NCBI RefSeq assembly: GCF_002914525.1 | Contig: NZ_LODW01000058.1 | Location: forward strand, 1 to 64,000 | Source of the DNA: Rhizobium hidalgonense | GTDB lineage: Bacteria > Pseudomonadota > Alphaproteobacteria > Rhizobiales > Rhizobiaceae | Length of the DNA stretch: 64,000 nt | Reading direction: 5' to 3' | In this document: piece after piece, positions 45,031-62,612 of the stretch | How positions within the stretch are numbered: position 1 is the first letter of the stretch | How the letters are laid out: each line of letters opens with the position of its first letter | Made by a program: the position numbers and the translations under genes | The notes under the pieces: generated by a model | What the model was told of the DNA's origin: nothing | Databases searched by the model: none | What the model saw: only the letters and a program-made list of their open reading frames with translations

Positions 45031-45119
45031 GCCGCCACAGGCCAGCCTGCAAATGATGCTCTTGATCATTGGCTCAGTTGAGACTAAATATAACCTCAAG
45101 TGAAGAGGAGCCGTTGCCC

Positions 45120-45551
45120 ATGGTAGGATTTTCTATGGTCGCCGACGTTCTAGGATTGCCCGCCAGGGAGCCGGCGTCGCGCTCCGCCTTCGGCCTGCTC
45201 TCCAGCATCGAGGCTGGATTGCCGGTCAAGGCGCTCGACCGCATGGCGCTGCTTCTGGCGCCAGGCGACGCCCAGTTCAAATACCGGCTGGTTCCGAAGG
45301 CCACCTACGAGCGGCGCAAGTCCAAGCATCGGCTTTCCTCCGACGAGGGCGTGAAGCTCGCCCGGCTCGCGCGCGTCTGGGGCCTGGCGCTCGATGTCTG
45401 GCAGGCCGAGGCCGAGGCGCGTGATTTCCTGTTTCGTCCGCATGCGATGCTGGAGGACAGGCGGCCGATCGATGTCGTCATCCAGAGCGAGATCGGCGGG
45501 GAGCTCGTGCTTGATATCCTTGCAAGCCTGAAATACGGCAGCGCTGCGTGA
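45120..45551 (+). CDS. Xre/MbcA/ParS-type antitoxin (DUF2384)
   Basis: A 143-residue antitoxin of the Xre-RES toxin-antitoxin class. The N-terminal part is helical with a Cro-like fold, and the C-terminal DUF2384 region (RLARVWGLALDVWQAEAEARDFLFRPHAMLEDRRPIDV in several pieces) blocks the toxin active site. ATG 45120 follows GAGGAG at somewhat long spacing; a TTG at 45114 is closer. Its TGA overlaps the toxin GTG. It binds its own promoter in known systems. Confidence 0.88.
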   Translation: MVGFSMVADVLGLPAREPASRSAFGLLSSIEAGLPVKALDRMALLLAPGDAQFKYRLVPKATYERRKSKHRLSSDEGVKLARLARVWGLALDVWQAEAEARDFLFRPHAMLEDRRPIDVVIQSEIGGELVLDILASLKYGSAA

Positions 45552-46030
45552 GCGCACAGCTTCTTGACCGAACGCTGACATCCGTTCGTATTGGTGATCC
45601 CAACGGAACCTACCCGATCTTCGATGCCACCGGCTCGACCATCGCGCCGGGGCGGTGGAACACCTCGGGCAGCCCGATCATCTATACGAGCCAACACTAT
45701 TCGACCGCGCTGCTCGAAAAGCTCGTCCACGGCAGCGGCAGGCTGCCACCCAACCAGCATTACGTCACGATCACCATACCGCGCGGGCTCAGCTACGAGG
45801 TCTTCTCCGAACCCGCCTTGCCGGGCTGGGACAGCATGCCGGCGAACGCTAGCAAGACATTCGGCGAACGCTGGTGCCAGGAGAGGCGCAGCGCCATCCT
45901 GCTGGTCCCAAGCGCAGTCGCCCGCGTCGATAACAACATATTGATCAATCCGGCCCATCCGGAATTCCCATCGATCACGGTCAGCCTCCACCAGCCCGTC
46001 TTCTGGGATCGCCGTCTGTTCGGGGTGTGA
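45548..46030 (+). CDS. RES-domain toxin
   Basis: A 160-residue RES-domain toxin. Characterised family members degrade NAD+ and stop growth when free of antitoxin. Expected conserved residues are visible: Arg14 (VRIGD), GRWN (35-38), Glu57 in LLEKLVH, and Ser in RRSAILLVPSAV followed by NNILINPAHPEF. It appears complete and intact. The GTG start overlaps the antitoxin stop by four bases, the usual coupling. Confidence 0.9.
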   Translation: MSAQLLDRTLTSVRIGDPNGTYPIFDATGSTIAPGRWNTSGSPIIYTSQHYSTALLEKLVHGSGRLPPNQHYVTITIPRGLSYEVFSEPALPGWDSMPANASKTFGERWCQERRSAILLVPSAVARVDNNILINPAHPEFPSITVSLHQPVFWDRRLFGV

Positions 46031-46282
46031 TGGGCAGGCTTTCAGCACGTAGCATCCTGTGAACTTGCCGGTTATCCTGGCATCCGCAGATGTTCTTAAG
46101 AAGCCGTCCATCGGCTTACGGCAATGTCCGGCGATGCGGGCGAGGTCCGAACCTCGTCATCATCATTTACCTTAAAAAGTAAGGTCAATTTGGTGCGTAG
46201 CTATGACGCACGGCGGTCCAATTGACTCTCAGCATTTGGCATGTAATTGCTGATCCGATTTTTAAGAATTCAAGTAGAATAT
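46031..46282. other. AT-rich intergenic region before a polysaccharide module
   Basis: About 250 bases without a gene. Base composition drops in GC from about 46140 onward and stays lower into the next gene. It probably holds the promoter for the pyruvyl transferase gene and may mark the edge of a transferred segment. No integrase site, direct repeat or tRNA was seen. Confidence 0.5.
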
Positions 46283-47368
46283 ATGTATCATCTCGGCGAA
46301 CTTGTAATACGACGACAGCAAGAAAAGTTGATTAAATCGGTAAGGAAATTTGTTAGTAAAGGACAGCCTTACGTTATAATGGATTTTCCATCTGCCAAGG
46401 ATCCTGGGCACCACGCGAGTTGGCTGGGATTGGCTAGGGTATTATACGAAGTAACGGGACGGCATCCGGTGCTTACCGGTGGCGTGGCCAAAAGTATTGA
46501 TGAAGTAAAAAATACTCCTGGCGACGCGCCAATATTTATTTGTGGGTGGTCAGACTTCGGAGACGGGCGAATCGGCAGGGACGATATTCGTTTTCGTCTG
46601 GCATGCAGATATCCGGACCGAACCATCATTCAGATGCCTCAAACCATCGATTTCGCCAACGATGCACTTCTGGAATACGCCAAGCGTACGATTGGAAGGC
46701 ATCGCAAATTTTTCTTTATGACCCGCGATGAGCAGAGTTTTGGGCTGGCAAAAGCGAATTTCGATTGCGATGTCGAGGCTGGCCCGGACACGGCATTCAG
46801 CATCGAGCTGCTTAAACCGTTCGAAGCTGATCCTATGAGGCTACTGTACGTGATGCAGCCTTTTGGAGATGACGACGTTGATATAGCCGAAGCGCGAGCG
46901 ATTGCAGACGGCCCCCTTACCAATTGGATCAATGGTCCGGATAGTTTGTGGCGCCTGCGCAAGTCGAGTGTCGTCAAGGCGGCAATGCGGCGTGGCTTTA
47001 GCCGTGCCCAGATGGTGTCCCAACATCACGAGGATGTCGCTGCTCGGTATGTCGATTATGGCGTGAGGATGCTGTCCGGCGCGCAACGGATCATCACCAA
47101 CCGTTTACATGGTCATATTCTCTGTCTTTTGCTCAATAAGCCGCATGTCGCGGTTGCGAGAAACGGAAGTAGGCTGCACGACGCCATCGGTAGCTGGGCT
47201 AGCGACAGTCCTCTGGTGGAGAAAGCGACAAATGCCGGTGAACTTTTAGCGGCAATGTCTCGCCTTCCGTATGAGATGAACGGAACTTGGTACAAGTCAA
47301 GTAGACCCATGGATCTGAGCCCCAGCCTTCCTGCGCGAGATCTAGTCCCTCATCCCTCGATCGTTTGA
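46283..47368 (+). CDS. polysaccharide pyruvyl transferase family protein
   Basis: A 361-residue member of the PF04230 family (ExoV, CsaB), which adds pyruvate ketals to sugars of surface polysaccharides. Visible traits: FICGWSDFGDGRIG early, the central IQMPQTI, FMTRDEQSFGLAKA, and the C-terminal RIITNRLHGHILCLLL with the conserved Arg-x-His. ATG 46283 is chosen; an in-frame TTG at 46247 is possible. Codon use is more AT-rich than in neighbours, suggesting horizontal origin. The flippase gene starts 20 bases after its stop. Confidence 0.82.
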   Translation: MYHLGELVIRRQQEKLIKSVRKFVSKGQPYVIMDFPSAKDPGHHASWLGLARVLYEVTGRHPVLTGGVAKSIDEVKNTPGDAPIFICGWSDFGDGRIGRDDIRFRLACRYPDRTIIQMPQTIDFANDALLEYAKRTIGRHRKFFFMTRDEQSFGLAKANFDCDVEAGPDTAFSIELLKPFEADPMRLLYVMQPFGDDDVDIAEARAIADGPLTNWINGPDSLWRLRKSSVVKAAMRRGFSRAQMVSQHHEDVAARYVDYGVRMLSGAQRIITNRLHGHILCLLLNKPHVAVARNGSRLHDAIGSWASDSPLVEKATNAGELLAAMSRLPYEMNGTWYKSSRPMDLSPSLPARDLVPHPSIV

Positions 47369-47388
47369 TTCCCAGTAGGAGCTCAGTT

Positions 47389-48915
47389 TTGTCGGTTGCA
47401 CGAGACGATGATATTCTATTCAGCCATGTCAATAAGAACCGATCCTCGGCGGCTGTAACGGGTGCCTTTTGGTCGGCGATGAGCACGCTTATCCCGACAG
47501 TCCTTACCTTCGCAGTTTTCGTGGTGACGTCTCGAGTCCTCCAGCCTCAAGATTTCGGTCTTGTCGCGCTGGCATTCAGCATCGTGTCGTTTGCCGGCAG
47601 TTTTGGACCGACCGCATTTGGCGAAGCGATCATACAGCGAGCCGAAATAAGGCGAAGCCACCTCGATACGATATTCCTGCTTTCGCTTGCTTTTTCATTT
47701 TTGATCTACGGAGTTTTGTGTGCAGCCGCTTCGCCTATCGCGGCCTACGTGGGACATAAGGAAATCACGTCCCTTATCTACATCATGGGATTGAAGGTAT
47801 TCTTCGACTTCACGGCCGTCGTTCCGAATGCGATCGTCAACAGGAAGATGTCATTCCATCTGGTCGCCGTCCGAACTGTTATCGCCACCATTACGTCTGG
47901 TTGCATTTGCCTTGTTTTGGTTCTCGCCGGTTTCGGGTTGTGGGCGCTTGCAATTGCGCAGATCGCGGCCACCGCGGCATCATGCGGCGCTGCTTTCTGG
48001 GGTGCAGGGTGGTCGCCGGGGCTTCACGTGAAGAGAGAAAGCCTGAACGACCTGCTGCACTACGGCTTTTTTGCATCCGGCACTCGATTTTTACAGACGA
48101 TGAGCTTGGACAATTTGATCATCGGCGTGCTCTTGAGCCCGTCAGCGCTCGGTATTTACAATTTCTCGAAGCGCTTGTTCGATATGATCAACAATGTCAT
48201 CGCTGGGGGCTTAACTTCTGTCACCCATGTCTTGCTATCCTCATTGCGGAGCGATCCGAAGAAGGTTCGAGAAGCATTTCTGATGGCGACGTTTGGCTGT
48301 GCCCTGGTTTCCTACCCGGTCTTCATTGGCCTTGCTGCCGTTGCCGATGATGCGATCACGACAATTTTCGGTGCGCATTGGATCGAGGCCGTTTGGCCGG
48401 TTCGGTTCTACTGCGTTATCGGGTTGATGGCCGGGATCGGCTACGTGCAGGCATCCTTGATCAAGAGCCAGGGGGAGATGGATTGGTGGTTCTACTACCA
48501 GCTGGCACGAAATCTCCTCACGCTCGTAACGATCGCAGCTCTTTATCCTTATGGCGTCACAACAGTTGTTTTCGCCATTATGATCGAAGTTCTGTTGTTT
48601 TGGCCGATCACCAGCTGGAAGGTTTCGCGCCATATAGAGCTGAGTGTCGGGGCCTATCTGATGCAATTCCTTCGGCCAAGCCTGGCTTGTGCGGGAATGG
48701 TCGCTGTGGTTTTGCTGCTGCATGAATCGCTCGTCCATTGGTCGCCTTATCCACGATTGGCCGTGGAAATCGTCGCCGGCGGAATTGCATACTGCTGCCT
48801 GATCTTTGTTCTGTGCAGATCTCATCTCAATGTCTTGATCGGCAGCATAAAGCAGGTACGACAGCGCAAAACCAACAGGGACGAGATTGTCGACCCTGTG
48901 GCACATCAATCGTGA
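47389..48915 (+). CDS. Wzx-type polysaccharide flippase
   Basis: A 508-residue membrane protein with about 12-14 hydrophobic segments of the Polysacc_synt_3/MviN-like type. It would flip lipid-linked repeat units across the inner membrane. The start is a TTG at 47389 with AGGAG seven bases upstream; the frame is open back to 47365 but lacks a ribosome site there. Immediately follows the pyruvyl transferase gene. Confidence 0.88.
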   Translation: MSVARDDDILFSHVNKNRSSAAVTGAFWSAMSTLIPTVLTFAVFVVTSRVLQPQDFGLVALAFSIVSFAGSFGPTAFGEAIIQRAEIRRSHLDTIFLLSLAFSFLIYGVLCAAASPIAAYVGHKEITSLIYIMGLKVFFDFTAVVPNAIVNRKMSFHLVAVRTVIATITSGCICLVLVLAGFGLWALAIAQIAATAASCGAAFWGAGWSPGLHVKRESLNDLLHYGFFASGTRFLQTMSLDNLIIGVLLSPSALGIYNFSKRLFDMINNVIAGGLTSVTHVLLSSLRSDPKKVREAFLMATFGCALVSYPVFIGLAAVADDAITTIFGAHWIEAVWPVRFYCVIGLMAGIGYVQASLIKSQGEMDWWFYYQLARNLLTLVTIAALYPYGVTTVVFAIMIEVLLFWPITSWKVSRHIELSVGAYLMQFLRPSLACAGMVAVVLLLHESLVHWSPYPRLAVEIVAGGIAYCCLIFVLCRSHLNVLIGSIKQVRQRKTNRDEIVDPVAHQS

Positions 48916-49050
48916 TATCGGGACTCCTCCGTTGCGACCTGCCTTGCGGAGAAGCTACTGATACGTAAAGCAGCGGTCGGCACACACGTCACTTTCAGTC
49001 CACTGCATTGAACGCCGCTCAGGCACAAGCGAAATAGGGTAATCGATCAG

Positions 49051-50142
49051 ATGACCAGTCTCGACCGCGGTTATTCGCCATCGACCATTGACGACGCAGG
49101 AGTGTCGATTCCCGAGCGCAGCCGTTACTATTCCCTGGATGCAATGCGCGGGTTTGCCGCTATTTGTGTTGTCGCTACACATTTCCAGGAACGATATGCC
49201 CCATCGGCCTATCTGGCTGTCGACTTTTTCTTCGTTCTCAGTGGATTTATTATCGCGGAGATTTATGGAAAACGGCTTGCGCGTGGCCTGCCATTCCCCG
49301 CGTTCATGGCGGCTCGAATCAAGCGCCTTTATCCGCTCTATCTGATCGGAATTTTGGTCGGTCTCGTCCAGATCATACTGTTAACAAGCTGGGGTCTGCG
49401 AGATCAAAGCGTGGTTGACCTGCTGGTGTCGACCGTTGCCAACGGGGTTTTTCTGCCCAGCCCGATGTATTTCCTTCAAACCAACCCGATGCAAGGGATG
49501 TTTCCAATCAACGGTCCAGCATGGTCGATGTTCTGGGAACTGTTGGTGAACATAGTCTTTGCGCTATGGCTTTTCCGGCTCTCTGTTCGCGCCCTTTGCG
49601 AAGTCGCACTGGTTTCGGCTGCGCTTTTGGTTTTTGTGGGTCTTAATTACGGTATGCTGAATATCGGCTGGGAATGGCCTTCAGCGGTAGGTGGTCTCCC
49701 AAGGGTCATGTTTTCATTTACTGTAGGGGTCGTGATCAGCCGTCTATTCGGTGGAATGCCGGCCTGGAGCAAAGGTTGGACGGCGATCGTGCCGTGCCTT
49801 CTCCTGATGGTTTTCATGGCCGCACCGGTTCCTTCCCTGCTGCGGCCCTACTACGATTTGACCTTCGCGATAGCTCTGGCGCCGCTCACCGTGATGCTTG
49901 GCCTCTTTCTGGAGATGCCGGCAAAAGCAGATAGGTTGGCGACATGGGTTGGCTATATCTCCTACCCCGTCTACATCCTGCACCGCGGTGTGATCGGTGT
50001 TTTCAAGCCAGTCGCCGGGTCGATCGGATTGAGCGGCCCTCTCGCCTTTCTCGTGCTTCTGAGTGCAGTCCTATGTTTCGCTTACGGAACTGCTCGTCTC
50101 GTAGACAAAACGATGGCCATGCGGGCTCGGCCAGCTCGATAA
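49051..50142 (+). CDS. acyltransferase 3 family membrane protein
   Basis: A 363-residue protein of the acyltransferase 3 family (OafA, ExoZ), with about ten membrane segments. The catalytic-type His is seen in the opening block LDAMRGFAAICVVATHF, and the family's VDFFFVLSGFII and ARIKRLYPLYL follow. It probably acetylates or acylates sugars of the same polysaccharide. It lies 135 bases after the flippase gene. Confidence 0.9.
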   Translation: MTSLDRGYSPSTIDDAGVSIPERSRYYSLDAMRGFAAICVVATHFQERYAPSAYLAVDFFFVLSGFIIAEIYGKRLARGLPFPAFMAARIKRLYPLYLIGILVGLVQIILLTSWGLRDQSVVDLLVSTVANGVFLPSPMYFLQTNPMQGMFPINGPAWSMFWELLVNIVFALWLFRLSVRALCEVALVSAALLVFVGLNYGMLNIGWEWPSAVGGLPRVMFSFTVGVVISRLFGGMPAWSKGWTAIVPCLLLMVFMAAPVPSLLRPYYDLTFAIALAPLTVMLGLFLEMPAKADRLATWVGYISYPVYILHRGVIGVFKPVAGSIGLSGPLAFLVLLSAVLCFAYGTARLVDKTMAMRARPAR

Positions 50143-50164: not shown

Positions 50165-51151
50165 TCACGCCCTGGGCCGTGGCGAGCGGGCCATCAGCCG
50201 GGCATAGGCGATGGCCGACAGCATGTTGACATGGTTGGCTTTGCCGGTGCCGGCAATGTCGAAGGCTGTGCCGTGATCGACCGAGACGCGGTCGATCGGC
50301 AGGCCGAGCGAGACGTTGACCGCCGTCTCGAAGGCGACGAGCTTGATCGGGATATGGCCCTGGTCGTGATATTGGGCAATGACCAGATCGAAGGCGCCAT
50401 TATAGGCGCGGGCGAACACCGTGTCGGCGGAGATCGGGCCGACGACGTCGATACCGCTAGCCTGTGCCTGCTCGACGGCGGGTGCCAGGAATTCCGTGTC
50501 CTCGGTGCCGAACAGGCCGTTTTCGCCGCAATGCGGATTGAGGCCGGCGACGGCGATGCGCGCCTTCTTACCAAGGCGCAGGAAGTGCTTGTGACCGGCT
50601 TCGATGGTGGCCAGAACCCGCTCGGTCTTGGCGCGTTCGATCGCCCCCTTCAGCGAGATATGGGTGGAGACATGGATGGTGTTCAGCCGCTCGGAGGCAA
50701 GCAGCATGAACGAACTCTTCGAGCCGGTCAGATGGGCGAGAAGCCCGGTGTGCCCGTCATGGTGATGGCCGGCAAGGTTCATCGCTTCCTTGTTGATCGG
50801 CGCGGTGACGATGACATCGGCCTCACCAGCCATGGCAAGATCGACGGCGCGGGTGATATAACGCACCGAGGCATCGCCGGCGACGGGGCTGACCTTACCG
50901 ATTTCGGGCAGGGCCGCGCCGAGCACGACTTCGTCGACGGCGATCATGCCATCGCCCGCATCGGCAGGCCCGAATTTGAGGCCGGTGCTGCAGACGCGAT
51001 CGGCGCGCTCCAGCGCTTCGACATTGCCGACGATGACAAAATCGCGGCGCTCTTTGCTGGGAAGGGCCGCCAAGGCCTTGACGATCACTTCGGGGCCGAC
51101 GCCGGAGGGATCGCCGAGCGTCACTGCGACTTTCGCATTCCTGTCCATCAT
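50165..51151 (-). CDS. pdxA2: PdxA2-type four-carbon acid-sugar phosphate dehydrogenase
   Basis: A 328-residue member of the PdxA family. It has [11 protein letters not shown] at the start, the metal-binding His stretch [25 protein letters not shown] and [14 protein letters not shown]. Housekeeping PdxA makes vitamin B6, but this gene stands in a cluster with a DUF1537 kinase. That combination is known from D-threonate and erythronate pathways, where PdxA2 oxidises and decarboxylates the 4-phosphate to dihydroxyacetone phosphate. The ATG at 51151 follows GAAGGG. It begins 12 bases after the Fe-dehydrogenase stop, so they are one operon. Assignment as PdxA2 is by context. Confidence 0.8.
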
Positions 51152-51162
51152 CAATATCCCTT

Positions 51163-52296
51163 CTAGAACGCCGCTGTGTAGATCGAGCGAATGTCGGCGC
51201 GCGTGAGATCGCGCGGATTGTTGTCGAGCAGCCGGCGGATGGCAAAGGCATCGTCGGCCATGGCGTCGAGATCGCTTTCCGGCACGCCGAGGCCGGAGAG
51301 TTTCATCTCGATGCCGAGTTCGGCGCAGAAAGCGTAGGCCGCATCGAAGACGGATGCGATGTTGTCAGAGGACTGGCGCCCAAGTGCTTCCATCACCGCT
51401 TTTGTCTTTTCCGGGGCCGACGGGGTGTTGAAGGCGAGTACATGTGGGAAGATCAGCGCATTCGCCGCACCATGCGCCACATGCCAGCGCGTGCCGAGGG
51501 GATAGGCGAGCGCATGGCCGCCGGCGGTGTTGACCGGGCCGAGGCAGAAGCCGCCGTACAGCGAGGCGAGCGAAAGGCCGGCGCGCGCTTCGGCGTCGTT
51601 GCCGTCCTTGACGGCGCGGGCGAGATATTTGCCGACGAGCCGCGTTCCCTCGATCGCATAGATGTCGACCATCGGATGGGCTTTGCGGTTGGTGAAGGCC
51701 TCGACGCAATGAGCCATCGCGTCGATGCCGGTGGCAGCCGTAGTCCGCGCCGGCACGGTGAAGGTCAGGGCCGGATCGATGACGGCTATATCGGCCAGCA
51801 TGTGCAGGCTTTCGACGGCAAGCTTCGCCATCGTGTTGGGATCGGTGACCAGTGCGCGGATGCCTGCCTCGCTGCCGGTGCCCGAGGTCGTCGGCACCTG
51901 GGCGAGCGCTGCCTTGCGCGGCCCGTGCACCTTGTTCGGGCCGACGACCTCATGCAGCGTCTGCGCGGAGCCGGCAAGAACGGCGGCAAGTTTTGCCAGA
52001 TCCATGGCGCTGCCACCGCCGAAGCCGACAATGAGTTCGGCATCGGCGCCATTGGCCGCCGCCAGGACTTTTTCGAGGTTGGCGGTATCCGGCTCGGGCG
52101 TCACTTCGGAAAAGACGGTGACTTCGCCCGTGAGTTCCAGCACATCGATACGCGAAGCGTTGAAAGCGTCGGAGATGACAAGCGCACGCCTATAGCCTTT
52201 TTCGGCAGCCCATTTGCCGAGCTTGCCCGCCGTGCCGATGCCGAATTCGATCAGATGCGGCCGAACGATCGTGATCGGCGAATCCAAGCTGGCCAT
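51163..52296 (-). CDS. iron-containing alcohol dehydrogenase
   Basis: A 377-residue group III alcohol dehydrogenase. The NAD-binding [12 protein letters not shown] (about 93-104) and metal-site region [11 protein letters not shown], followed by [10 protein letters not shown] and [14 protein letters not shown], are all present. The family includes maleylacetate reductases and hydroxyacid dehydrogenases, so a hydroxyl/keto acid step in the same pathway is likely. GGGAGGA is well placed before the ATG. It is followed closely by pdxA2. Substrate unknown. Confidence 0.88.
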
Positions 52297-52652: not shown

Positions 52653-53837
52653 TCAGGGCAGCGATCGCGGGGCCAGGCGCACATATTTGATGGCGCGCCG
52701 GTAATAGGTGTAGGCGATATGGAGTGTGCCGTCGCCGCCCTCGATGATCGAGGGATAGGAGAATTCGCGATTCAGCGAATCCTTCGAATTGTTGCTGAGG
52801 CAGAAGCCATCGCCGGTATCGAGATCGATGCGATGCGGAAAGCTCTTGCCGCCATCCCTAGAGATCGCCAGGCTGAGCGGCGCCCGGGGCACGCCCCAGA
52901 CCGCCTTGCGGCCGATATCGGCGACAACAGTGGTCTCTCCCGCCTCGCCACCCTCGATTTCGTCATAGAGCGACTGGCGGCGTGCGTCCGACATCGTCGC
53001 ATTCGAATGGTTATAAACCATTGCGATTGCTCCATCATTCAGGACGGTGGCCTGGATCGAGGAGTTGTTGTTCGGCAGTTCGGTCGGCGCGGGCGCGCTC
53101 CACGTTTCGCCGCCGTCGGACGATCGGCTGGAAAGGATGCTCTCGGCGAAACGATTGCGGTAGAAGGCGATCATTTCGTCGCCGCCGAGCGGCAGGATGT
53201 TCATGTGCACGGCACCGATACTGTCTGGAATATCGTGCATCTGCCAGCTTTCGCCGCCGTTCCGCGAGATCAGCACCGCTGCCGTATCGGCGTCGCCGCT
53301 CCAGCGCTGGCCGTTGAGGCCGACGCAGCGGAAGACCGGAAGCAGCCAGTCGCCCCGTCCGTTGACGACGATCGGCTGGCGAACGAATGTGCCGGGACTG
53401 CCGCAGAGGACCCTGACCAGCCCAAAGCTTTTGCCGCCATCGTCCGATATGCGGCATTTGACAACGGACCCGTCCTGATTGCCCGAGGTTTGCGAGGTAT
53501 AGAGCAGCCAAGTCTTTCCGTCAGGAGCATTGAAAATCAATGGATTCTGCTCGGATTTCTGTGGGTCGTCGCTCATCTTCTCCGGCTCGGACCAGCGCTC
53601 GGCGTCCGGTGCTAACCGCGACATGTAAATCGAAATATCGCCCATGCCCTCCATCGTGCCGCCGAACCAGACGCAGGTCAGCGTTCCGTCGGGCAGAAAA
53701 GCGAGATTTGCCGCATGGTTCTGGATGCAGGGCGAGGGCAGGTAGGCGTCGGCCCGGCCCTCGATGGCGGGGCGAGGGGTGATAAGCCCGGTCATCATGG
53801 CGGGCACGACTTCCGAAGGCAGGCCGGTAAAGCTCAT
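52653..53837 (-). CDS. sialidase-like (BNR repeat) protein, cytoplasmic
   Basis: A 394-residue six-bladed propeller-type protein of the BNR_2 sialidase-like group. Four Asp-box motifs are visible (SDDGGKSF, SRNGGESW, SSDGGETW, SRDGGKSF), and the C-terminal YPSIIEGGDGTLHIAYTYYRR is typical. There is no signal peptide and no FRIP motif of classical sialidases, so it probably acts inside the cell on an imported conjugate; true sialidase activity is doubtful. ATG 53837 follows GAGGAG. It begins 11 bases after the aldolase stop, in the same operon. Confidence 0.82.
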   Translation of the reverse strand: MSFTGLPSEVVPAMMTGLITPRPAIEGRADAYLPSPCIQNHAANLAFLPDGTLTCVWFGGTMEGMGDISIYMSRLAPDAERWSEPEKMSDDPQKSEQNPLIFNAPDGKTWLLYTSQTSGNQDGSVVKCRISDDGGKSFGLVRVLCGSPGTFVRQPIVVNGRGDWLLPVFRCVGLNGQRWSGDADTAAVLISRNGGESWQMHDIPDSIGAVHMNILPLGGDEMIAFYRNRFAESILSSRSSDGGETWSAPAPTELPNNNSSIQATVLNDGAIAMVYNHSNATMSDARRQSLYDEIEGGEAGETTVVADIGRKAVWGVPRAPLSLAISRDGGKSFPHRIDLDTGDGFCLSNNSKDSLNREFSYPSIIEGGDGTLHIAYTYYRRAIKYVRLAPRSLP

Positions 53838-53848
53838 GGCGGGTCTCC

Positions 53849-54754
53849 TCAAGGCAGCTTGGCATAGCTTTCGGCAAGTGCGGCGTAGTCCGCCTCGCCG
53901 AGCGGCATCAGCGGCGGGCGCGTTCGGCTCCAGGCGGGATTGCCCGTCTTCAGCCCCACCATTGCCTTGATGGTCGGGATCTGGACGTAGGAGTTGGAAA
54001 GCGTGCGATAGGCGTTGATACGCGCCTGCGCCGCCTCGACATCGGCGGCGCGCGCCTCGTCATGGACGTGGTCGTAGATGGTGCGCAGCGAATCCGCCAC
54101 CAGATTGGAGGTGGCGGTGATGCAGCCGGCGCCGCCGGCCTTCAGCAGCGGCAGCAGCAGCGGATCGGCGCCCGCCAGCACCGAAAAACCGGGATGCGCG
54201 GCGATAATGGCCTGCATGTTATTGAAATCGCCGGCAGATTCCTTGATGCCGACGACCGTTTCCGGGAAGGCGGCAATCAGCCGGCCGATCAGCGGAATGG
54301 ACAGCGGCACGCCCGAGACCTGCGGGATATGATAGAGGATGACCCGAAGGCGCGTGTCGGCGACCTTTTCCAGCACCTGCGAATAGGCGGCGAACAGGCC
54401 GTCGTCAGAAACGCCCTTGTAATAGAATGGCGGCAGCATCACCACCTTGGTGACACCGAGCGACAGCGCGTGCCGGGTCAGTTCCACGGTCTCCGGAATG
54501 GCGACGACCCCGGTGCCCGGCAGAAGCCTGTCGGCCGGAATGCCGGCCTTCACGGCCGCTTCCAGAATGGCGCGGCGCTCGGCTCCGGAGAAGGAATTGG
54601 CCTCGCCCGTCGTACCGAGCAGGGCCACGCCATGACATCCTTCAGCCAGCAGCTGCCGGCAATGATCGGTGAAAAGCGCCAAATCCGGCGTGTTGTCTGC
54701 CGTCAGCGGCGTCGCGGCCGCACTGAAGACGCCTGTGATCCTGTGATGGCTCAT
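53849..54754 (-). CDS. DHDPS/N-acetylneuraminate lyase family aldolase
   Basis: A 301-residue class I aldolase. It has the family GTTGEANSFS motif (about 46-55), the Tyr of YHIP (about 135-138) and the Schiff-base Lys in VVGIKESAGDF (about 164). Members cleave or make 2-keto-3-deoxy acids with pyruvate, or make dihydrodipicolinate. The catabolic setting argues against lysine synthesis. It is first in the minus-strand operon with the sialidase-like gene. ATG 54754 has GGGGAT upstream. Actual substrate unknown. Confidence 0.88.
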   Translation of the reverse strand: MSHHRITGVFSAAATPLTADNTPDLALFTDHCRQLLAEGCHGVALLGTTGEANSFSGAERRAILEAAVKAGIPADRLLPGTGVVAIPETVELTRHALSLGVTKVVMLPPFYYKGVSDDGLFAAYSQVLEKVADTRLRVILYHIPQVSGVPLSIPLIGRLIAAFPETVVGIKESAGDFNNMQAIIAAHPGFSVLAGADPLLLPLLKAGGAGCITATSNLVADSLRTIYDHVHDEARAADVEAAQARINAYRTLSNSYVQIPTIKAMVGLKTGNPAWSRTRPPLMPLGEADYAALAESYAKLP

Positions 54755-54999: not shown

Positions 55000-55081
55000 G
55001 AGAGAACCATAAGGAACGGATTGTGCTGCGCCTGGCAGGTGCAGGGAGAGCGCCGCCGAATTCACCGTGGGAGGGAATGCC

Positions 55082-56719
55082 ATGTCTTTTGATCAATCTG
55101 ATAAAACCAATCTATCGCGTCGCAACGCACTGAAGCTCGGTCTTGCGGCCGGCGTCGGGCTCACCGTGTTCGGGATGAATGCCCGCATCGTGATGGCTGA
55201 CGAGGGCCAGGTCCTGAAAGTCGCACATCCGGCCTTCGACCAGGACTGGTCACCGCTGCGCGGCGGCGGCAGAACCTTCCGCTGGAATTCGATCTGGTGG
55301 GCAGCGCCGATGTATTTCGACAGTGAAGGCAATATCAAGCCTTACGTCTTTACCAGCTGGGAATCGGCCGACAACACGGTGTGGACCTTCAAGATCGACC
55401 CCAAGGCGGTTTTCTCTGATGGCAGCAAGATCACCGCGGCCGACGTCAAGGGATCGTGGGAAGTCGCCTCGATGCCGAACACCAAGAGCCAGCGCGCCGA
55501 CCAGGTGCTGAGCAAGGTCAAGGGTTATGCCGAAATCGCCGCCGGCTCCGGCAAAGAGCTGACCGGTGTCGCAACACCCGACGAGGGAACGGTCGTCGTG
55601 ACGCTTGGTGCCGCCGATCCGATCTTCTTCATGCGCCTGGCAAATCACATCGCGCCGATCACCAAGGCGTCGCAGTCGCGCGGCAGCGACGGCGAGGAGA
55701 TCATCGACTGGTACAAGCCCGACAGCAAGCCGGTGTTCTCCGGCCCCTTCAAGCTGACCAGCATCGATATAGACGCCGGCAAGCTCACCTTCGAGCCGAA
55801 TGAGAACTTCTTCGGGCCGAAGCCGAAGCTCGCGCGCATCGAGGTCACCTCGATCGAGGATAATGTGACGGCGACATCGCTGATCAAATCCGGCGAGTTC
55901 AATGCCCATACCGAGCTGGTCACCTCGACGATCATCCAGGATCTCGGCCCGGAATTCTCGGCCGGCCCGCTGATCCCGACCAGCCAGCACTTCTGGTTCA
56001 ACATCTCCCGCGCGCCGATGGATGACCCGAAGGTCCGCCAGGCGCTGATCATGGCGGTCGACCGCGACGGTCTGTTCAAGGCGTCTTATCCGGATGGGCC
56101 GCACAAGAAGGCCGACCAGATCCTCAACTCGGTTCCAGGCGCCGAGAATTCCGGCTTCGAGCCCTTTCCCTATGATCCGGCAGCCGCCAAGAAGCTGCTT
56201 GCCGAGTCGAGCTATGGCGGACCAGAGCGCCTGCCGAAAATCATGTTCGTCGGCATCTCGGCGCCGGCCATTCAGGCCGCCGCCCAGTTCATTGCCGAGC
56301 AATGGCGCCAGAACCTCGGCATCACTGCGGTCGACATGAAGCCGCAGCAGGACGCCTATGCCGGTCCGGACCAGAATTCGGTCCAGATCTTCCGCGACGA
56401 CGTCGGCACCCGCGTTCCCGATGCCGTCTCCTATCTGGCGGGCTGCATCGCCTCGACCTCGTCGAACGCGCAGAACAAGCTCGGCGGGTATAAAAACGAC
56501 AAGGTCGACAGCGCCCTTGCCGAAGCGACGACCAAGGCCGCGGACGATCCGCAGCGCATCGCTCTCGCCCAGCAAGCCCAGAAGGCGTTCCGCGACGATT
56601 GGGCCTTCATCCCGTGGTATTCTCAGGCGATGTCGCGCTGGGCCACCAAGGAAGTCAAGGGTCTGGACAAGAACCTCGACTGGCAGATCGTCGAGCCGTG
56701 GAACATTTCGATCGGTTGA
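55082..56719 (+). CDS. oligopeptide-type periplasmic binding protein
   Basis: A 545-residue SBP_bac_5 protein (DppA/OppA type) with a twin-arginine signal (SRRNALKLGLAAGVGLTVFG, residues about 12-31) cut near MADEG. The family binds peptides but also many sugar conjugates, opines and oligosaccharides. GGGAGGGAATG precedes the ATG. First gene of the plus-strand operon, divergent from the aldolase. Its ligand is probably the compound degraded by the cluster. Confidence 0.9.
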   Translation: MSFDQSDKTNLSRRNALKLGLAAGVGLTVFGMNARIVMADEGQVLKVAHPAFDQDWSPLRGGGRTFRWNSIWWAAPMYFDSEGNIKPYVFTSWESADNTVWTFKIDPKAVFSDGSKITAADVKGSWEVASMPNTKSQRADQVLSKVKGYAEIAAGSGKELTGVATPDEGTVVVTLGAADPIFFMRLANHIAPITKASQSRGSDGEEIIDWYKPDSKPVFSGPFKLTSIDIDAGKLTFEPNENFFGPKPKLARIEVTSIEDNVTATSLIKSGEFNAHTELVTSTIIQDLGPEFSAGPLIPTSQHFWFNISRAPMDDPKVRQALIMAVDRDGLFKASYPDGPHKKADQILNSVPGAENSGFEPFPYDPAAAKKLLAESSYGGPERLPKIMFVGISAPAIQAAAQFIAEQWRQNLGITAVDMKPQQDAYAGPDQNSVQIFRDDVGTRVPDAVSYLAGCIASTSSNAQNKLGGYKNDKVDSALAEATTKAADDPQRIALAQQAQKAFRDDWAFIPWYSQAMSRWATKEVKGLDKNLDWQIVEPWNISIG

Positions 56720-56850
56720 TCCGGAGCAATCGTTCCTGGCGATAAACGCGCGGAGGCTGCAAGGCCTTCGCGCAAATTTCAAGAAGAGATGCGATCTGCC
56801 GGGCGTCGGCCAAGGACGGGACCGCATCGAACAACAGGTGGGAGGTGGCC

Positions 56851-57807
56851 TTGCTGCGCTACGTGCTAACCCGGTTTGCCATCTGGATTCCATCCGTTCT
56901 GGTGGTGATGCTGGCCGTCTACGCGCTGGCCTTCTATGGCGCCGGCGACCCGATCAAGCTGATCTTCCTGCGCGCCCCGGGCGATGTCGCCTATAATCCG
57001 CAGCGCATCGAAGCCATCCGCGAAAGCGCCGGTCTCAACCGGCCCTTCATCGAGCAGTTCGGCCTTTACCTCTGGAACCTGCTGCACGGCCAGTTCGGCA
57101 ATTCGCTGACCTCGGGCCGCGCCGTCTGGGCAATGGTCTCGGCTGCTGCGCCCGTCTCCTTTCAGCTCGCCCTCTGTTCGATCATCCTGACGACCGTCGT
57201 CGCGATCCCGCTCGGCATGATCGCCGCGCTGAACCAGAATTCGCGGCTCGATTACGCCATTCTGGGCTCGGCGCTTTTCCTCTGGGCGATCCCGGCCTAT
57301 GTCGCCGGCCCGCTGCTGATGGTCGGCCTCATCGTGCTGCTGCCGGGTGCAAGCGTTCCCTATGGCTGGGGCGGCATCTTCGATGTGCGCATCCTGCTGC
57401 CGTTGCTCGTGCTGTCCTTCCAGCCGATCGCGCTGATCGTGCGCCAGACCCGGGCTGCCGTCATCGAGGTGCTGTCGGAGGATTTCGTCCGCACCGCCCG
57501 CGCCAAGGGCGTGCCGGAGATCATCGTGGCGCTTCGCCACATCCTGAGGCCGGTGTTGACGCCTGTCGTGACGCAGCTCGGCCTGATTATGATCACCATC
57601 GTCAACGGCGCGATCTTCGTCGAACTGGTCTTTGGCCTGCCGGGTCTCGGGCGCCTGACGGTGCAGGCGCTGATCAATTCCGACTATCCTGTCATCCTTG
57701 CGATCACGCTGATCGGATCGTTCCTGGTGATGGTGTCGAACCTTTTGGTCGACGTGCTCTATCCGCTGCTCGATCCGCGCGCCAACGATTCAAGAAGGAG
57801 CCGCTGA
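56851..57807 (+). CDS. DppB-type ABC permease
   Basis: A 318-residue permease with six membrane segments and the family ends (LLRYVLTRFAIWIPS; VNGAIFVELVFGLPGLGRL). A TTG at 56851 is chosen because GGAGG ends five bases before it; the GTG at 56845 would overlap the ribosome site. Works with the DppC-type permease. Confidence 0.9.
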   Translation: MLRYVLTRFAIWIPSVLVVMLAVYALAFYGAGDPIKLIFLRAPGDVAYNPQRIEAIRESAGLNRPFIEQFGLYLWNLLHGQFGNSLTSGRAVWAMVSAAAPVSFQLALCSIILTTVVAIPLGMIAALNQNSRLDYAILGSALFLWAIPAYVAGPLLMVGLIVLLPGASVPYGWGGIFDVRILLPLLVLSFQPIALIVRQTRAAVIEVLSEDFVRTARAKGVPEIIVALRHILRPVLTPVVTQLGLIMITIVNGAIFVELVFGLPGLGRLTVQALINSDYPVILAITLIGSFLVMVSNLLVDVLYPLLDPRANDSRRSR

Positions 57808-57809
57808 CC

Positions 57810-58765
57810 ATGTCCGCCATCCCTCTTTCCACCACCGAAGCCGTCGAGGAGCCGTCGGTCAGCCTGTGGCGCGACGCCTGGTACCGGCTGAAGCGCAACA
57901 AGCTCGCCATCTTCGGGCTGATCGTCGTGTTGATCCTCGCCTTCACGGCAATCTTCGGTCCTTACCTTACGCCCTACGACTATCTGAGCCAGGATCTCAA
58001 CGCCCGCAACGCGTTGCCGTCGATGAGCCATCTCTTCGGAACCGACGATCTCGGCCGCGACGTCTTCAGCCGCGTTGTCTTTGGCACGCGGACCGCTTTC
58101 CTCGTCGCCGTCATCGTCACCTTCTTCGCGGTGCTGATCGGCCTCACGCTCGGCGCCGTTGCCGGTTTCTTCGGCAATCCCTTCGACCGCGTCATCATGT
58201 GGCTGACCGACGTGACGATGTCGGTTCCCAACTTGCTGCTCGTCGTCGTCATCAACGCATCGCTGAAATCGCCGATCACCCGCTGGATGGAGGCGCGTTA
58301 CCTCGAGACCCTCAATCCCTTCTACCGCCAGACCATATGGGTGGATTTCATCCTGGTCTTCGGGTCGATGGCGCTGATCTCCTGGCCGCCTTATGCTCGT
58401 CTGGTGCGCGCCCAGGTGCTGTCGATCCGCAGCCGGCCCTATATTACCGCGGCGCAGGCGCTCGGCCTGTCGAACTGGGTCATCATCAAGCGGTATGTCG
58501 TGCCGAATGCGCTGGGGCCGCTGATCGTCTCGGTCAGCGCCGGTCTCGGCACGGCGATGGTGCTGGAAAGCGCCTTCAGCTTCCTCGGCGTCGGCGTCAA
58601 TCCGCCGACCCCGAGCTGGGGCAACATGATCTCGGACGGCCTTCGCGTCTGGCAGCATTATCCGCATCTTCTCGCCGCTCCGGCGGCCGTGCTCGGCCTT
58701 GCCTCGGTTGCCTTCAGCTTCCTCGGCGACGGTCTTAACGACGCGCTCAATCCGCGGGGCAGCAA

Positions 58766-58769
<4 letters not shown>
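57810..58769 (+). CDS. DppC-type ABC permease
   Basis: A 319-residue permease with the DppC N-terminal pattern (WYRLKRNKLAIFGLIVV), FGTDDLGRDVFSRVVFGTR and AFSFLGVGVNPPTPSWG. It begins two bases after the DppB-type gene, and its stop overlaps the next start. Confidence 0.92.
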
Positions 58770-59769
<1,000 letters not shown>

Positions 59770-59773
<4 letters not shown>

Positions 59774-60765
59774 TGGGTGCTCAACCGCTGCTCAAGATCG
59801 AAAACCTGGTCAAGCATTTCCACGTCAAGCTGGGCGCCTTCGGTGAGCGCTCGGCAACTGTCTATGCGCTCGACAATGTCAATCTCGACATCATGGAAGG
59901 CGAGACGCTGAGCCTCGTCGGCGAATCCGGCTGCGGCAAGTCGACGACCGGCTTCACCATCCTCAATCTCTACAAGGCGACCAGCGGCAAGGTCGTCTAC
60001 AAGGGTCAGGATCTCGCGACGCTCGACGAAAGGCAGATGCGGCCGTTCCGCCGTGACTTGCAGATCGTCTTCCAGGACCCTTATTCGACGCTCAATCCGC
60101 GCATGACGGTGGGCGAGGCAATCGGCGAGCCGATCCTCTTCCACAAGCTCTGCACAAAAGCCGAACTCAAGGAGCGGGTGGCGGCGCTGCTGACTGATGT
60201 CGGCCTGCCCACACGCTTTGCCCAGCGTTACCCGCACGAGCTTTCCGGCGGACAGCGCCAGCGCGTCGTCATTGCCCGGGCGCTCGCCTGCCAGCCGAAA
60301 TTCATCGTCTGCGACGAGGCGATTTCGGCGCTTGACGTGTCGATCCAGGCGCAGATCATCAACCTGCTGCTCGATCTGCAGGAGAAATACGGGCTGACCT
60401 ATCTGTTCATCGCCCATGATCTGGCGGTGGTGCGCCATATCAGCACCCGCGTCGGCGTCATGTATCTCGGACGGCTTGCCGAACTTGCCAGCCGCGAGGA
60501 GCTGTTCGACAATCCGTTGCATCCCTATACCAGGGCGCTGCTGTCGGCCGTCCCGGAGACCGATCCGGAGCATGAGCGCAGCCGCCAGCGCCAGATTCTG
60601 CAGGGCGACGTCCCGAGCCCGCTGAACCCGCCGTCGGGCTGCCGTTTCCACACCCGCTGCCCGATCGCCATGGATGTCTGCAGCAAGGTCATTCCTGTCT
60701 GGAAGGAAGCAACGCCCGGCCACCTCGTCGCCTGTCATGCCGTCAGTACGGGTGAGATTCCATGA
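59770..60765 (+). CDS. DppF-type ABC ATPase
   Basis: A 331-residue partner ATPase: Walker [11 protein letters not shown]-loop [10 protein letters not shown], signature LSGGQRQR, Walker [11 protein letters not shown] (the DEA form usual for DppF), H-loop FIAHD, and the C-terminal oligo_HPY region ([15 protein letters not shown]). ATGATG start overlaps the DppD-type stop; the stop overlaps the kinase ATG, so the kinase is translationally coupled to the importer. Confidence 0.93.
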
Positions 60766-61826
60766 CGCTGAAGGCCGCGATCATTGCCGACGATCTGACG
60801 GGCGCGCTCGATACCGGCACGCCCTTCGCCGCCGCCGGCCTTTCAGTCGCGGTCGCCGTCGATGTCGAGGCAGCCCGGGATGCGATCGCCACCGGCTGCG
60901 ATGTCGTCGTCGTCAACACCGCTTCGCGCGCGCTGAACGAGCGCGAGGCTGCCGAAAGGATCCGACTGGCGGTGGAGATGCTGGGCGGCGCGAAGCCCGG
61001 TATCGTCATGAAGAAGATCGACTCCCGGCTGAAGGGCAATGTCGCGGCTGAAAGTCTGGCGCTGGCAGGTGCGCTGGGCCTGAAGAACATTCTGGTGGCG
61101 CCTGCCATTCCCGATCAGGAGCGCCTGACCTACCGCGGCTGCGTCGTCGGCCGCGGTGTCGACAGGCCGTTGCCGATTGCCGATCTGTTCGCGGGTGCGG
61201 ACAATGTTGTGGTTGCCGATGCCGCAGACGATACCGATCTCGATCAGATCGTCGAGGGTCATGTCTGGCTGACGACGCTTGGGGTCGGTGCGCGCGGCCT
61301 CGGTGCGGCATTCGCTCGCCAGCTCGGTGAACCACCAGGGCGACGGCCGGTGACGGAATTTGCGGCGACCGCGCGCACGCTGTTTGCCTTCGGCTCGCGC
61401 GATCCGATCACCTCAGCCCAGATGAACCGGCTCGAAGCCTCGGGCGCCCTACGTATGGTGGTGGATGCTCCGATGGGGCAGATCGAATGCGGGGAGGGCT
61501 TGGCGCTGCCGGTTCTGCTGCGCTGCAGCGGCGACATGGCAGCCGATGCGATGCTCGTCGCCGGTGATTTTGCCGCAGGCGTTAAAAGGGTGATCGACGA
61601 TACCAGGCCCGATATGCTGATGGTCGGCGGCGGCGATACGGCGCTTGCGGTTTTCCGTGCATTGGGGGTGAGGGTGCTCATGCCGAAGGGCGAAATCGAG
61701 GCCGGCATTCCCTGGTTCGATGTCACGGCCGCCGACGGGCGGTCTTTTCGATGCGCCGTCAAGTCGGGGGGCTTCGGTAAGCCGGATAGTTTGTTAAAAC
61801 TGGTTCTTCGGAATCAGGCGGCATAA
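60762..61826 (+). CDS. DUF1537 four-carbon acid-sugar kinase
   Basis: A 354-residue DUF1537 (OtnK/DtnK/LtnK-like) kinase, a family shown to phosphorylate C4 acid sugars such as D-threonate, D-erythronate or L-threonate/3-keto derivatives. The N-terminal substrate domain shows IADDLTGALDTG and MKKIDSRLKGN; the C-terminal nucleotide domain shows VGGGDTALAVFRALG. It is shorter than typical members (about 420 residues), mostly in the middle, so its substrate may differ. It overlaps the importer ATPase gene by four bases. PdxA2 at the far end of the cluster is the expected next enzyme. Confidence 0.85.
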   Translation: MTLKAAIIADDLTGALDTGTPFAAAGLSVAVAVDVEAARDAIATGCDVVVVNTASRALNEREAAERIRLAVEMLGGAKPGIVMKKIDSRLKGNVAAESLALAGALGLKNILVAPAIPDQERLTYRGCVVGRGVDRPLPIADLFAGADNVVVADAADDTDLDQIVEGHVWLTTLGVGARGLGAAFARQLGEPPGRRPVTEFAATARTLFAFGSRDPITSAQMNRLEASGALRMVVDAPMGQIECGEGLALPVLLRCSGDMAADAMLVAGDFAAGVKRVIDDTRPDMLMVGGGDTALAVFRALGVRVLMPKGEIEAGIPWFDVTAADGRSFRCAVKSGGFGKPDSLLKLVLRNQAA

Positions 61827-61847: not shown

Positions 61848-62612
61848 GTGGTTGAAGTGAATGGCGATTCTTTGAACGCGGATGCCGGCCCGCCGGGCAA
61901 GCCCGAACGCGGCAAAGCCGTCAAGCTGGTCGACCGCGTCTTCGACCACTTGCTCGAGCGTATCCGCGGCGGGAACTATCCGCCGGATTCGCGCCTGCCC
62001 GGCGAACATGAACTTGCCTCGATGCTAGGTGTTTCCAGGCCGATCATCCGCGACGCGCTCGCCCGCCTGCGCGATCGGGGCATGGTCTATGCCCGCCAAG
62101 GCGCCGGCACCTTCGTCAGCGCCCATGGATCGCCGACGACGCAGCTTGCCTATTCGCCTGTTAAGACCATCGCCGACATTCAGCGCTGCTACGAATTCCG
62201 CCTGACGATCGAGCCGGCCGCCGCCTATTTTGCCGCCAAGCGGCGCAACGAGCAGGCGATCCAGAAGATTGCCAGCGCCCTTGCCGATCTGCGCGAGGCG
62301 ACCAGCCATCAGCTTCACCGCACAGATGCCGATTTCATCTTCCACCGCGCGGTGACGGAGGCTGCCAACAACCATTATTACACCGCTTCGATCGATGCGC
62401 TGAAAGCCCATATCGCCGTCGGCATGCATCTCCACGGCCTCTCCCTGCTCGGCCCGCGCCAGGGGCTGGAACAGGTCTACGAAGAGCATAACGCCATCTA
62501 CAAGGCGATCGCGGACGGGCGGGCCGACGACGCGCAAAGGCTGATGAAGGCGCATCTCGAAGGCTCCCGCGACCGTCTGTTCGAGGGCAGGGCACTCGAC
62601 CTGTCCTTCTGA
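61848..62612 (+). CDS. GntR/FadR-family regulator of the acid-sugar cluster
   Basis: A 254-residue regulator: winged helix (about 22-90, GNYPPDSRLPGEHELASMLG and VSRPIIRDAL) and an FCD ligand domain (YEFRLTIEPAAA, the TDADFIFHRAV metal-site part, and RLMKAHLEGS at the end). The start is a GTG at 61848 with GGGGAGAAT upstream. It closes the plus-strand operon, so it probably senses a pathway intermediate and controls both operons through TTTACAATAA-type sites. Confidence 0.88.
   Translation: MVEVNGDSLNADAGPPGKPERGKAVKLVDRVFDHLLERIRGGNYPPDSRLPGEHELASMLGVSRPIIRDALARLRDRGMVYARQGAGTFVSAHGSPTTQLAYSPVKTIADIQRCYEFRLTIEPAAAYFAAKRRNEQAIQKIASALADLREATSHQLHRTDADFIFHRAVTEAANNHYYTASIDALKAHIAVGMHLHGLSLLGPRQGLEQVYEEHNAIYKAIADGRADDAQRLMKAHLEGSRDRLFEGRALDLSF

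What the first reader, a model, noticed from the sequence alone, without database searches (positions are those of the whole stretch)
52653..53837. Sialidase-like propeller without export signal or FRIP motif
Four Asp-boxes and the BNR_2 end are clear, yet there is no signal peptide and no FRIP-type arginine motif. An intracellular propeller next to a NAL-family aldolase suggests action on an imported nonulosonate-like or acid-sugar conjugate, possibly not as a sialidase.
Basis: partly seen in the sequence, partly recalled or inferred. Interest (0 to 1): 0.5.

Follow-up and report, generated by a model that had tools for sequence, protein, structure and literature searches.

The report
Rewired sialidase in a sugar-acid pathway
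A rhizobium-like bacterium carries a sialidase-shaped enzyme inside the cell, with an altered active site, in a gene cluster that looks built to eat an unusual plant cell-wall sugar acid, probably Dha, for which I found no described breakdown route.

Summary
Window 52653-53837(-) encodes a 394-aa BNR_2 protein with four Asp-box-like motifs, a good ATG/Shine-Dalgarno start, no hydrophobic signal-like N-terminus and no FRIP motif. The AF2 model (pLDDT 90) has the GH33 sialidase fold (Z 36.9, 2.3 A, 310 residues). By sequence alignment the catalytic set is rewired: R227, R318 and Y361 are kept, but Arg1 is His41, the acid/base position Glu63 and the Tyr-activating Glu His211. I do not file it in GH33.

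Related loci share a gene set: propeller, NAL/DapA aldolase, Fe-ADH, DUF1537 four-carbon-acid kinase, PdxA and an importer. All four partner families are present in 78 of 94 loci, 19 of 27 dereplicated, 17 of 40 in a genome sample, and 0 of 20 control loci. Two Pantoea PdxA copies pass the D-threonate-4-phosphate dehydrogenase cut-off, though no kinase was found beside them. Caballeronia fuses kinase and PdxA.

Best reading: the set degrades a C7 2-keto-3-deoxy-aldarate to pyruvate and D-threonate, hence DHAP. Of eight configurations only D-lyxo (Dha of pectin RG-II) and D-xylo give D-threonate. The propeller would cleave an imported Dha ketoside. The gene set is well supported; Dha and the propeller's chemistry are inference.

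The parts
52653..53837 (-). sialidase-fold propeller, 394 aa, probably cytoplasmic; proposed Dha (2-keto-3-deoxy-aldarate) ketosidase
   Evidence: BNR_2 E 1.2e-64; AF2 pLDDT 90.1 (38); Z 36.9 to M. viridifaciens sialidase (48); conserved H41 E63 D67 H211 R227 R318 Y361 (101)
53849..54754 (-). NAL/DapA-family aldolase (ORF can be read from 54814; the start of the R. johnstonii homologue suggests 54754); proposed to split the C7 acid into pyruvate and a tetruronate
   Evidence: DHDPS E 9.2e-46; below the cut-offs of the seven NCBIfam models it matches (4); DapA-family match in 89 of 94 related loci (102)
51163..52296 (-). iron-containing alcohol dehydrogenase; proposed tetruronate reductase giving D-threonate
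   Evidence: Fe-ADH and ADH_Fe_C domains; match in 86 of 94 related loci (102)
50165..51154 (-). PdxA paralogue; proposed 4-phospho-D-threonate dehydrogenase (PdxA2-like)
   Evidence: PdxA E 1.9e-95 (3); one of three PdxA-family genes in the genome (50); match in 86 of 94 related loci (102)
55067..56719 (+). oligopeptide-type ABC transporter, solute-binding protein
   Evidence: SBP_bac_5 E 1.4e-60
56845..60765 (+). two permeases (56845-57807, 57810-58769) and two ATPases (58766-59773, 59770-60765) of the same importer
   Evidence: ORFs; the corresponding genes are annotated so in R. johnstonii 3841
60762..61826 (+). DUF1537 four-carbon-acid kinase; proposed D-threonate kinase
   Evidence: SBD_N 2.7e-29, NBD_C 3.1e-14 (3); best NCBIfam model D-threonate kinase 131 bits, under its cut-off of 450 (4)
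61848..62612 (+). FadR/GntR-type regulator
   Evidence: GntR and FCD domains

Best explanation
The propeller is the first cytoplasmic enzyme of a catabolic cluster for a seven-carbon 2-keto-3-deoxy-aldarate, most likely Dha (3-deoxy-D-lyxo-hept-2-ulosaric acid) of pectin RG-II. A small Dha ketoside enters through the oligopeptide-type ABC importer. The sialidase-fold propeller binds the 2-carboxylate with R227 and R318 and cleaves the ketosidic bond with Y361, activated by His211 in place of the usual Glu, with Glu63 as acid/base. The NAL-type aldolase splits free Dha into pyruvate and D-threuronate. Fe-ADH reduces that to D-threonate, the DUF1537 kinase makes 4-phospho-D-threonate, and the PdxA paralogue oxidises and decarboxylates it to dihydroxyacetone phosphate. 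Shown by computation: fold, replaced residues (by alignment), recurring gene set, domain families, the stereochemical match. Inferred: substrate, ketosidase chemistry, residue roles, order of steps.
For: Gene set: aldolase, Fe-ADH, PdxA and kinase all matched in 78 of 94 loci, 19 of 27 after 75% dereplication, 17 of 40 genome-sample loci, against 0 of 20 loci around weakly related propellers. Two Pantoea PdxA copies score 653 and 659 bits against the D-threonate-4-phosphate dehydrogenase cut-off of 583. Caballeronia fuses kinase and PdxA in one 768-aa protein. Aldolase + Fe-ADH + C4-acid kinase + PdxA implies pyruvate plus a C4 acid, so a C7 diacid; of eight 3-deoxy-heptulosarates only D-lyxo and D-xylo give D-threonate. 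Dha is D-lyxo (passage, 89). In Pantoea a YhcH homologue follows the propeller; YhcH opens cyclic Neu5Ac and KDN for an NAL aldolase (passages, 85). In one genus, PdxA and Fe-ADH relatives lie about 5.4 kb apart in a second locus in 11 of 11 genomes; the five of these loci fetched all match aldolase, Fe-ADH, PdxA, kinase, GntR and a tripartite-tricarboxylate-type binding protein, with no propeller match, so the propeller looks like a front-end module. A Streptomyces relative sits with an apiosidase-domain protein and, on the other strand, a GH28. GH143, a Dha hydrolase, is described as acting on a seven-carbon sialic acid analogue (passage, 95). GH33 homology: 33, 47, 48, 54, 97.
Against: The two Pantoea loci whose PdxA passes the D-threonate cut-off show no kinase match in the stretch (L032, L157), and two further Pantoea loci (L115, L116) match none of the four partners within 10 kb. 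The Streptomyces and Pseudoroseomonas loci match the aldolase but not Fe-ADH, PdxA or kinase, so the apiosidase/GH28 hint comes from one locus without the full set. In the sample 23 of 40 loci lack at least one of the four, and four match none, three of them on stretches of 18-20 kb. The window's kinase is short (354 aa) and its PdxA and kinase score under the D-threonate cut-offs. No arabinosidase or pectinase is annotated in the comparable R. johnstonii stretch. D-xylo is as good as D-lyxo by stereochemistry. The replaced residues could mean a lyase or isomerase. The solved chain 5mqr, which I recall to be the GH143-containing enzyme, matches the family profile only at E 0.008.
Confidence: 0.42

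Rival explanations
1. Same pathway, but the propeller is a lyase, anomerase, lactonase or isomerase acting on the free or conjugated acid, using His41, His211 or Tyr361 as bases and the arginines as carboxylate neutralisers.
For: The catalytic Glu and Arg1 positions are both His. Propeller lyases use a His base with an Arg neutraliser (PL42, passages). An anomerase is known to serve an NAL aldolase (passages, 85).
Against: PL42 is seven-bladed and BNR_4; this is the sialidase fold. In Pantoea both the propeller and a YhcH homologue are present, so a pure anomerase role would be redundant there.
Confidence: 0.26
2. Different acid sugar: the cluster degrades another ulosonate or acid-sugar conjugate (for example the D-xylo epimer, or a compound whose C4-acid part and 2-keto-3-deoxy part are separate).
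For: The specificity of the window's aldolase, kinase and PdxA is unproven; the aldolase and kinase score below every curated cut-off listed, and the PdxA passes only the general pdxA model. Some loci carry only part of the set (103).
Against: A single C7 diacid explains all four enzymes at once; Dha is a natural D-lyxo compound of plants (passage, 89).
Confidence: 0.22
3. A true sialidase (Neu5Ac, Kdn, Kdo or other ulosonate ketosidase) that happens to be cytoplasmic.
For: Sialidase fold and BNR_2; many public records call it exo-alpha-sialidase.
Against: Arg1, acid/base Asp and Glu positions replaced (33, 55, 101). Aldol cleavage of Kdo or Neu5Ac would give D-arabinose or ManNAc, which need no C4-acid kinase and PdxA (established chemistry).
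Confidence: 0.1

Closest known systems
GH33 sialidases (M. viridifaciens sialidase, NanC, IT-sialidase)
   Same: sialidase fold, Asp-boxes, two triad arginines and the tyrosine position
   Different: Arg1 position is His41, acid/base position Glu63, Glu position His211; no export signal seen (55, 88, 101)
GH143 Dha hydrolase of B. thetaiotaomicron (family from passage; the gene name BT1020 and its link to 5mqr are recalled)
   Same: proposed substrate Dha; weak profile match E 0.008 to 5mqr/5mqs
   Different: bimodular gut enzyme acting on RG-II; kinship to this family not established here
GH181 sialidase (Akkermansia Amuc_1547)
   Same: a GH33-related propeller whose catalytic residues were replaced (passages)
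   Different: GH181 replaces the third Arg and the Tyr with Gln; here Arg1 and Glu are replaced
D-threonate catabolism, D-threonate kinase plus 4-phospho-D-threonate dehydrogenase
   Same: DUF1537 kinase and PdxA-family gene in one cluster; DHAP as product (passages; PdxA2 as the dehydrogenase is recalled)
   Different: here joined to an aldolase and an Fe-ADH, with a propeller in front
Sialic acid catabolism (NanA aldolase with YhcH anomerase)
   Same: NAL-family aldolase; YhcH homologue in Pantoea loci
   Different: no C4-acid branch in the sialic acid route (established knowledge)

Membership tests
GH33 | sialidase fold with Asp-boxes | tested here: met
GH33 | triad of three arginines | tested here: not met
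   R227 and R318 align with Arg2 and Arg3, but no R[ILV]P motif exists and the Arg1 position falls on His41, 33 of 33 in A1; the Arg1 mapping rests on a weak alignment
GH33 | Tyr nucleophile with a Glu partner | tested here: not met
   Tyr361 kept 33 of 33 (its alignment with NanA is weak); the Glu position is His in 31 and Gln in 2 of 33
GH33 | Asp acid/base | tested here: inconclusive
   Glu63 aligns with an IT-sialidase Asp in a weak alignment, E 0.55
GH33 | hydrolysis of sialic acid ketosides | not testable with these tools
   needs an assay
GH143 | sequence or fold kinship to the Dha hydrolase domain | tested here: inconclusive
   only a short match, E 0.008, to 5mqr
GH143 | Dha hydrolase activity | not testable with these tools
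   needs an assay
GH181 | Gln in place of the Tyr and the third Arg | tested here: not met
   Tyr361 and Arg318 are kept
PL42 | seven-bladed BNR_4 propeller | tested here: not met
   BNR_2 and the sialidase fold instead
D-threonate-4-phosphate dehydrogenase (NF002891) | score over curated cut-off 583 | tested here: not met
   window copy 305 bits; two Pantoea copies 653 and 659 pass, four other cluster copies 303-336 do not
D-threonate kinase (NF047819) | score over curated cut-off 450 | tested here: not met
   window 131 bits; four cluster relatives 96-160
DUF1537 kinase family | SBD_N and NBD_C domains | tested here: met

The most novel reading that the evidence does not exclude
A complete bacterial catabolic pathway for the rare RG-II sugar Dha, ending in DHAP through D-threonate, fronted by a new cytoplasmic sialidase-fold ketosidase family with a His/Glu/His-rewired active site.
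Probability: 0.38. Interest if true: 0.75.

Novelty: new variant of a known kind. Interest (0 to 1): 0.6.

Why it matters
Dha occurs in the RG-II of plants, and I found no paper in the held library describing its catabolism (searches; of 168 papers in one search only 20 were listed). If true, it gives a function to a family that public records call exo-alpha-sialidase in rhizobia, Agrobacterium, Pantoea and others, links RG-II turnover to root-associated bacteria, and offers a propeller with a replaced catalytic set to compare with GH33, GH143 and GH181. Each step can be tested with purified enzymes.

Tried and rejected
A first structure job without an alignment failed (pLDDT 32.8); the second, with 36 sequences including the query, worked. 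PL42 membership was rejected on fold and Pfam family. Kdo and Neu5Ac were rejected as preferred substrates because their aldol products are not C4 acids. A link to published rhizosphere expression was looked for: the only gene found, pRL90085, is a CUT2-family transporter, not part of this cluster (search 69, passage). No row titled as the GH143 enzyme appeared among the 50 listed or the 60 listed; that does not exclude kinship. Residue-level structural superposition and pocket geometry could not be done, because the box holds no model coordinates and searches list no residue pairs; the residue mapping rests on sequence alignments only.

Choice of rows. The 80 loci are the best 80 of 582 confirmed relatives, so they lean to close relatives. 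Six loci (L032, L034, L035, L039, L155, L157) supplied query proteins for and match those by construction. For the 40-locus sample I took 35 of the 50 long matches (left out: the query genome, six close relatives, and G330, G367, G370, G393, G333, G320, G223, G346) and 5 new ones; some of these genomes may also lie behind loci. The control took 20 weak matches (14, 6); weak matches in ten other genomes (G618, G601, G637, G400, G554, G615, G607, G503, G211, G089) and fragments in G223, G273 and G370 were not used. In the control 17 of 20 loci reach 60 bits with the propeller query, and one (L218) has no propeller match at all.

The first two rivals were raised by 0.01 and 0.02 accordingly.

Full report
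The gene. Window 52653-53837 on the minus strand is a 394-aa ORF with ATG at 53837 and a good Shine-Dalgarno sequence. It matches Pfam BNR_2 over the whole domain at E 1.2e-64 and no NCBIfam model at E 0.001. Four Asp-box-like motifs are present, there is no R[ILV]P motif, and no N-terminal hydrophobic run in it or in 12 annotated homologues. It is the only close relative of its kind in its genome (one match; a second, weak BNR_2 match).

Fold. A model from 36 sequences including the query reached pLDDT 90.1 and pTM 0.91. Of the 50 Foldseek rows shown, 49 are sialidases or neuraminidases by title and one (4j9t) is a designed metalloprotein. VIA-align gives Z 36.9, rmsd 2.3 A over 310 residues to the M. 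viridifaciens sialidase. A family profile finds NanC at E 4.7e-12, and a broader profile at 2.6e-17.

Active site. Sequence alignment places His211 on a NanC glutamate and Arg227 on a NanC arginine, and Arg318 on chain index 296 of an M. viridifaciens chain, i.e. residue 342 if the numbering starts the chain at 47. Tyr361 falls on a tyrosine of NanA in a very weak local alignment, 0.3 bits. Glu63 falls on an Asp of the IT-sialidase, and His41 falls at the place of its FRIP arginine by ungapped extension of that weak alignment. The roles of these reference residues are recalled. In 33 family sequences H41, E63, D67, R227, R318 and Y361 are invariant, and position 211 is His in 31 and Gln in 2. 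In a 14-sequence set reaching 21% identity, E63, R227 and Y361 are invariant, H41 is 13 of 14 (one gap), and position 211 is Gln in 8 and His in 6. So the protein keeps part of the GH33 set and replaces the rest; with two defining features not met I do not file it in GH33. GH181 is a precedent for such drift (passages).

Neighbourhood. The window cluster holds, on one strand, the NAL/DapA aldolase, propeller, Fe-ADH and PdxA, and on the other an oligopeptide-type ABC importer, a DUF1537 kinase and a GntR regulator. R. johnstonii 3841 has the same order. Agrobacterium, Methylobacterium, Aminobacter, a Comamonadaceae strain, Caballeronia, Roseomonas and Martelella carry rearranged versions with other importers or regulators; Pantoea carries a version without a kinase match. 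The loci are mostly proteobacterial and nested by ancestry, so these counts are not independent events.

Exceptions. Sixteen of the 94 loci and 23 of the 40 lack at least one partner. Among the 94, L040, L115 and L116 match none of the four; L115 and L116 are Pantoea and keep the propeller, a sodium symporter, an SDR and YhcH. L036 (Pseudoroseomonas) and L037 (Streptomyces) match only the aldolase. In the sample L163, L171, L172 and L173 match none (L171 is a 4.6-kb contig). Nine sample loci of one genus match propeller, aldolase, kinase and importer but neither PdxA nor Fe-ADH in the 20-kb stretch. In 11 of 11 genomes of that genus PdxA (62-64% identity) and Fe-ADH (55-59%) relatives lie about 5.4 kb apart elsewhere. 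Five of these second loci were fetched: all five match aldolase, Fe-ADH, PdxA, kinase, GntR and, at 92-110 bits, the tripartite-tricarboxylate-type binding protein, and none matches the propeller. The core route thus exists without the propeller, which fits a front-end role. Whether the missing genes of the other loci lie elsewhere in their genomes was not tested.

Chemistry. Kinase and PdxA are fused in Caballeronia. Two Pantoea PdxA copies pass the curated D-threonate-4-phosphate dehydrogenase cut-off, 653 and 659 against 583, but their loci show no kinase match. The window's own PdxA and kinase do not pass the D-threonate cut-offs, and the genome has three PdxA-family genes. NAL-type cleavage giving pyruvate and a C4 aldehyde-acid, reduced by Fe-ADH to a C4 acid, needs a C7 2-keto-3-deoxy-aldarate. 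Of eight configurations, D-lyxo and D-xylo give D-threonate. The D-lyxo compound is Dha, in plants found to date only in RG-II (passage). In Pantoea a YhcH-family gene follows the propeller; YhcH opens cyclic Neu5Ac and KDN for the NAL aldolase (passages). In a Streptomyces plasmid a propeller relative (37%) lies in a run with an aldolase, an oligopeptide-type importer and an apiosidase-domain protein, with a GH28 nearby on the other strand. GH143 is a known Dha hydrolase (passage).

Mechanism. I propose a cytoplasmic Dha ketosidase feeding this route. My estimates: that the propeller belongs to an acid-sugar pathway with these partners about 0.85; a C7 diacid about 0.6; ketosidase on Dha about 0.42. 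The closest rival is the same pathway with a lyase or isomerase role for the propeller.

Literature. One search found two papers with its three terms; the one opened only lists Dha as an RG-II sugar (passage), the other was seen in the listing. One search found ten papers holding two or more of its six terms, and none of the ten holds 'heptulosar'. Searches listed nothing on Dha breakdown by title or abstract start (40: 20 of 168 listed). The founding DUF1537 paper is not held, so it may discuss related clusters that I could not see.

Noticed in passing
window 45069-46030 (+): Two adjacent ORFs that by eye and by place resemble the Xre-like antitoxin and RES NAD+ phosphorylase pair annotated beside the same cluster in R. 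johnstonii; no family search was run.
   Followed up: no
window 46247-50142 (+): ORFs that by eye resemble polysaccharide pyruvyl transferase, a flippase and an acyltransferase, perhaps a surface polysaccharide cluster.
   Followed up: no
L200:6322-15842 and L202:6594-16034 (also L201, L203, L204): Second locus of one genus with Fe-ADH, tripartite-type binding protein, aldolase, PdxA, GntR and DUF1537 kinase and no propeller match.
   Followed up: partly
L115 and L116: Pantoea loci with propeller, sodium symporter, SDR and YhcH but none of the four partner enzymes within 10 kb.
   Followed up: partly
L131-L149: Distant propellers (26-31%) share H.., EG..D and SYP-like motifs; many have an N-terminal hydrophobic stretch by eye that could be a membrane anchor.
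   Followed up: partly
L215 (G569:C6:21000-40999): A distant propeller (31%) with weak DapA-family (74 bits) and tripartite-transporter (105 bits) matches nearby, maybe a sister system.
   Followed up: no
L158:8137-10122: Spirosoma protein fusing a sulfatase-modifying-factor-like domain to BNR_2, near SusCD-type genes and a DHDPS-family gene.
   Followed up: no
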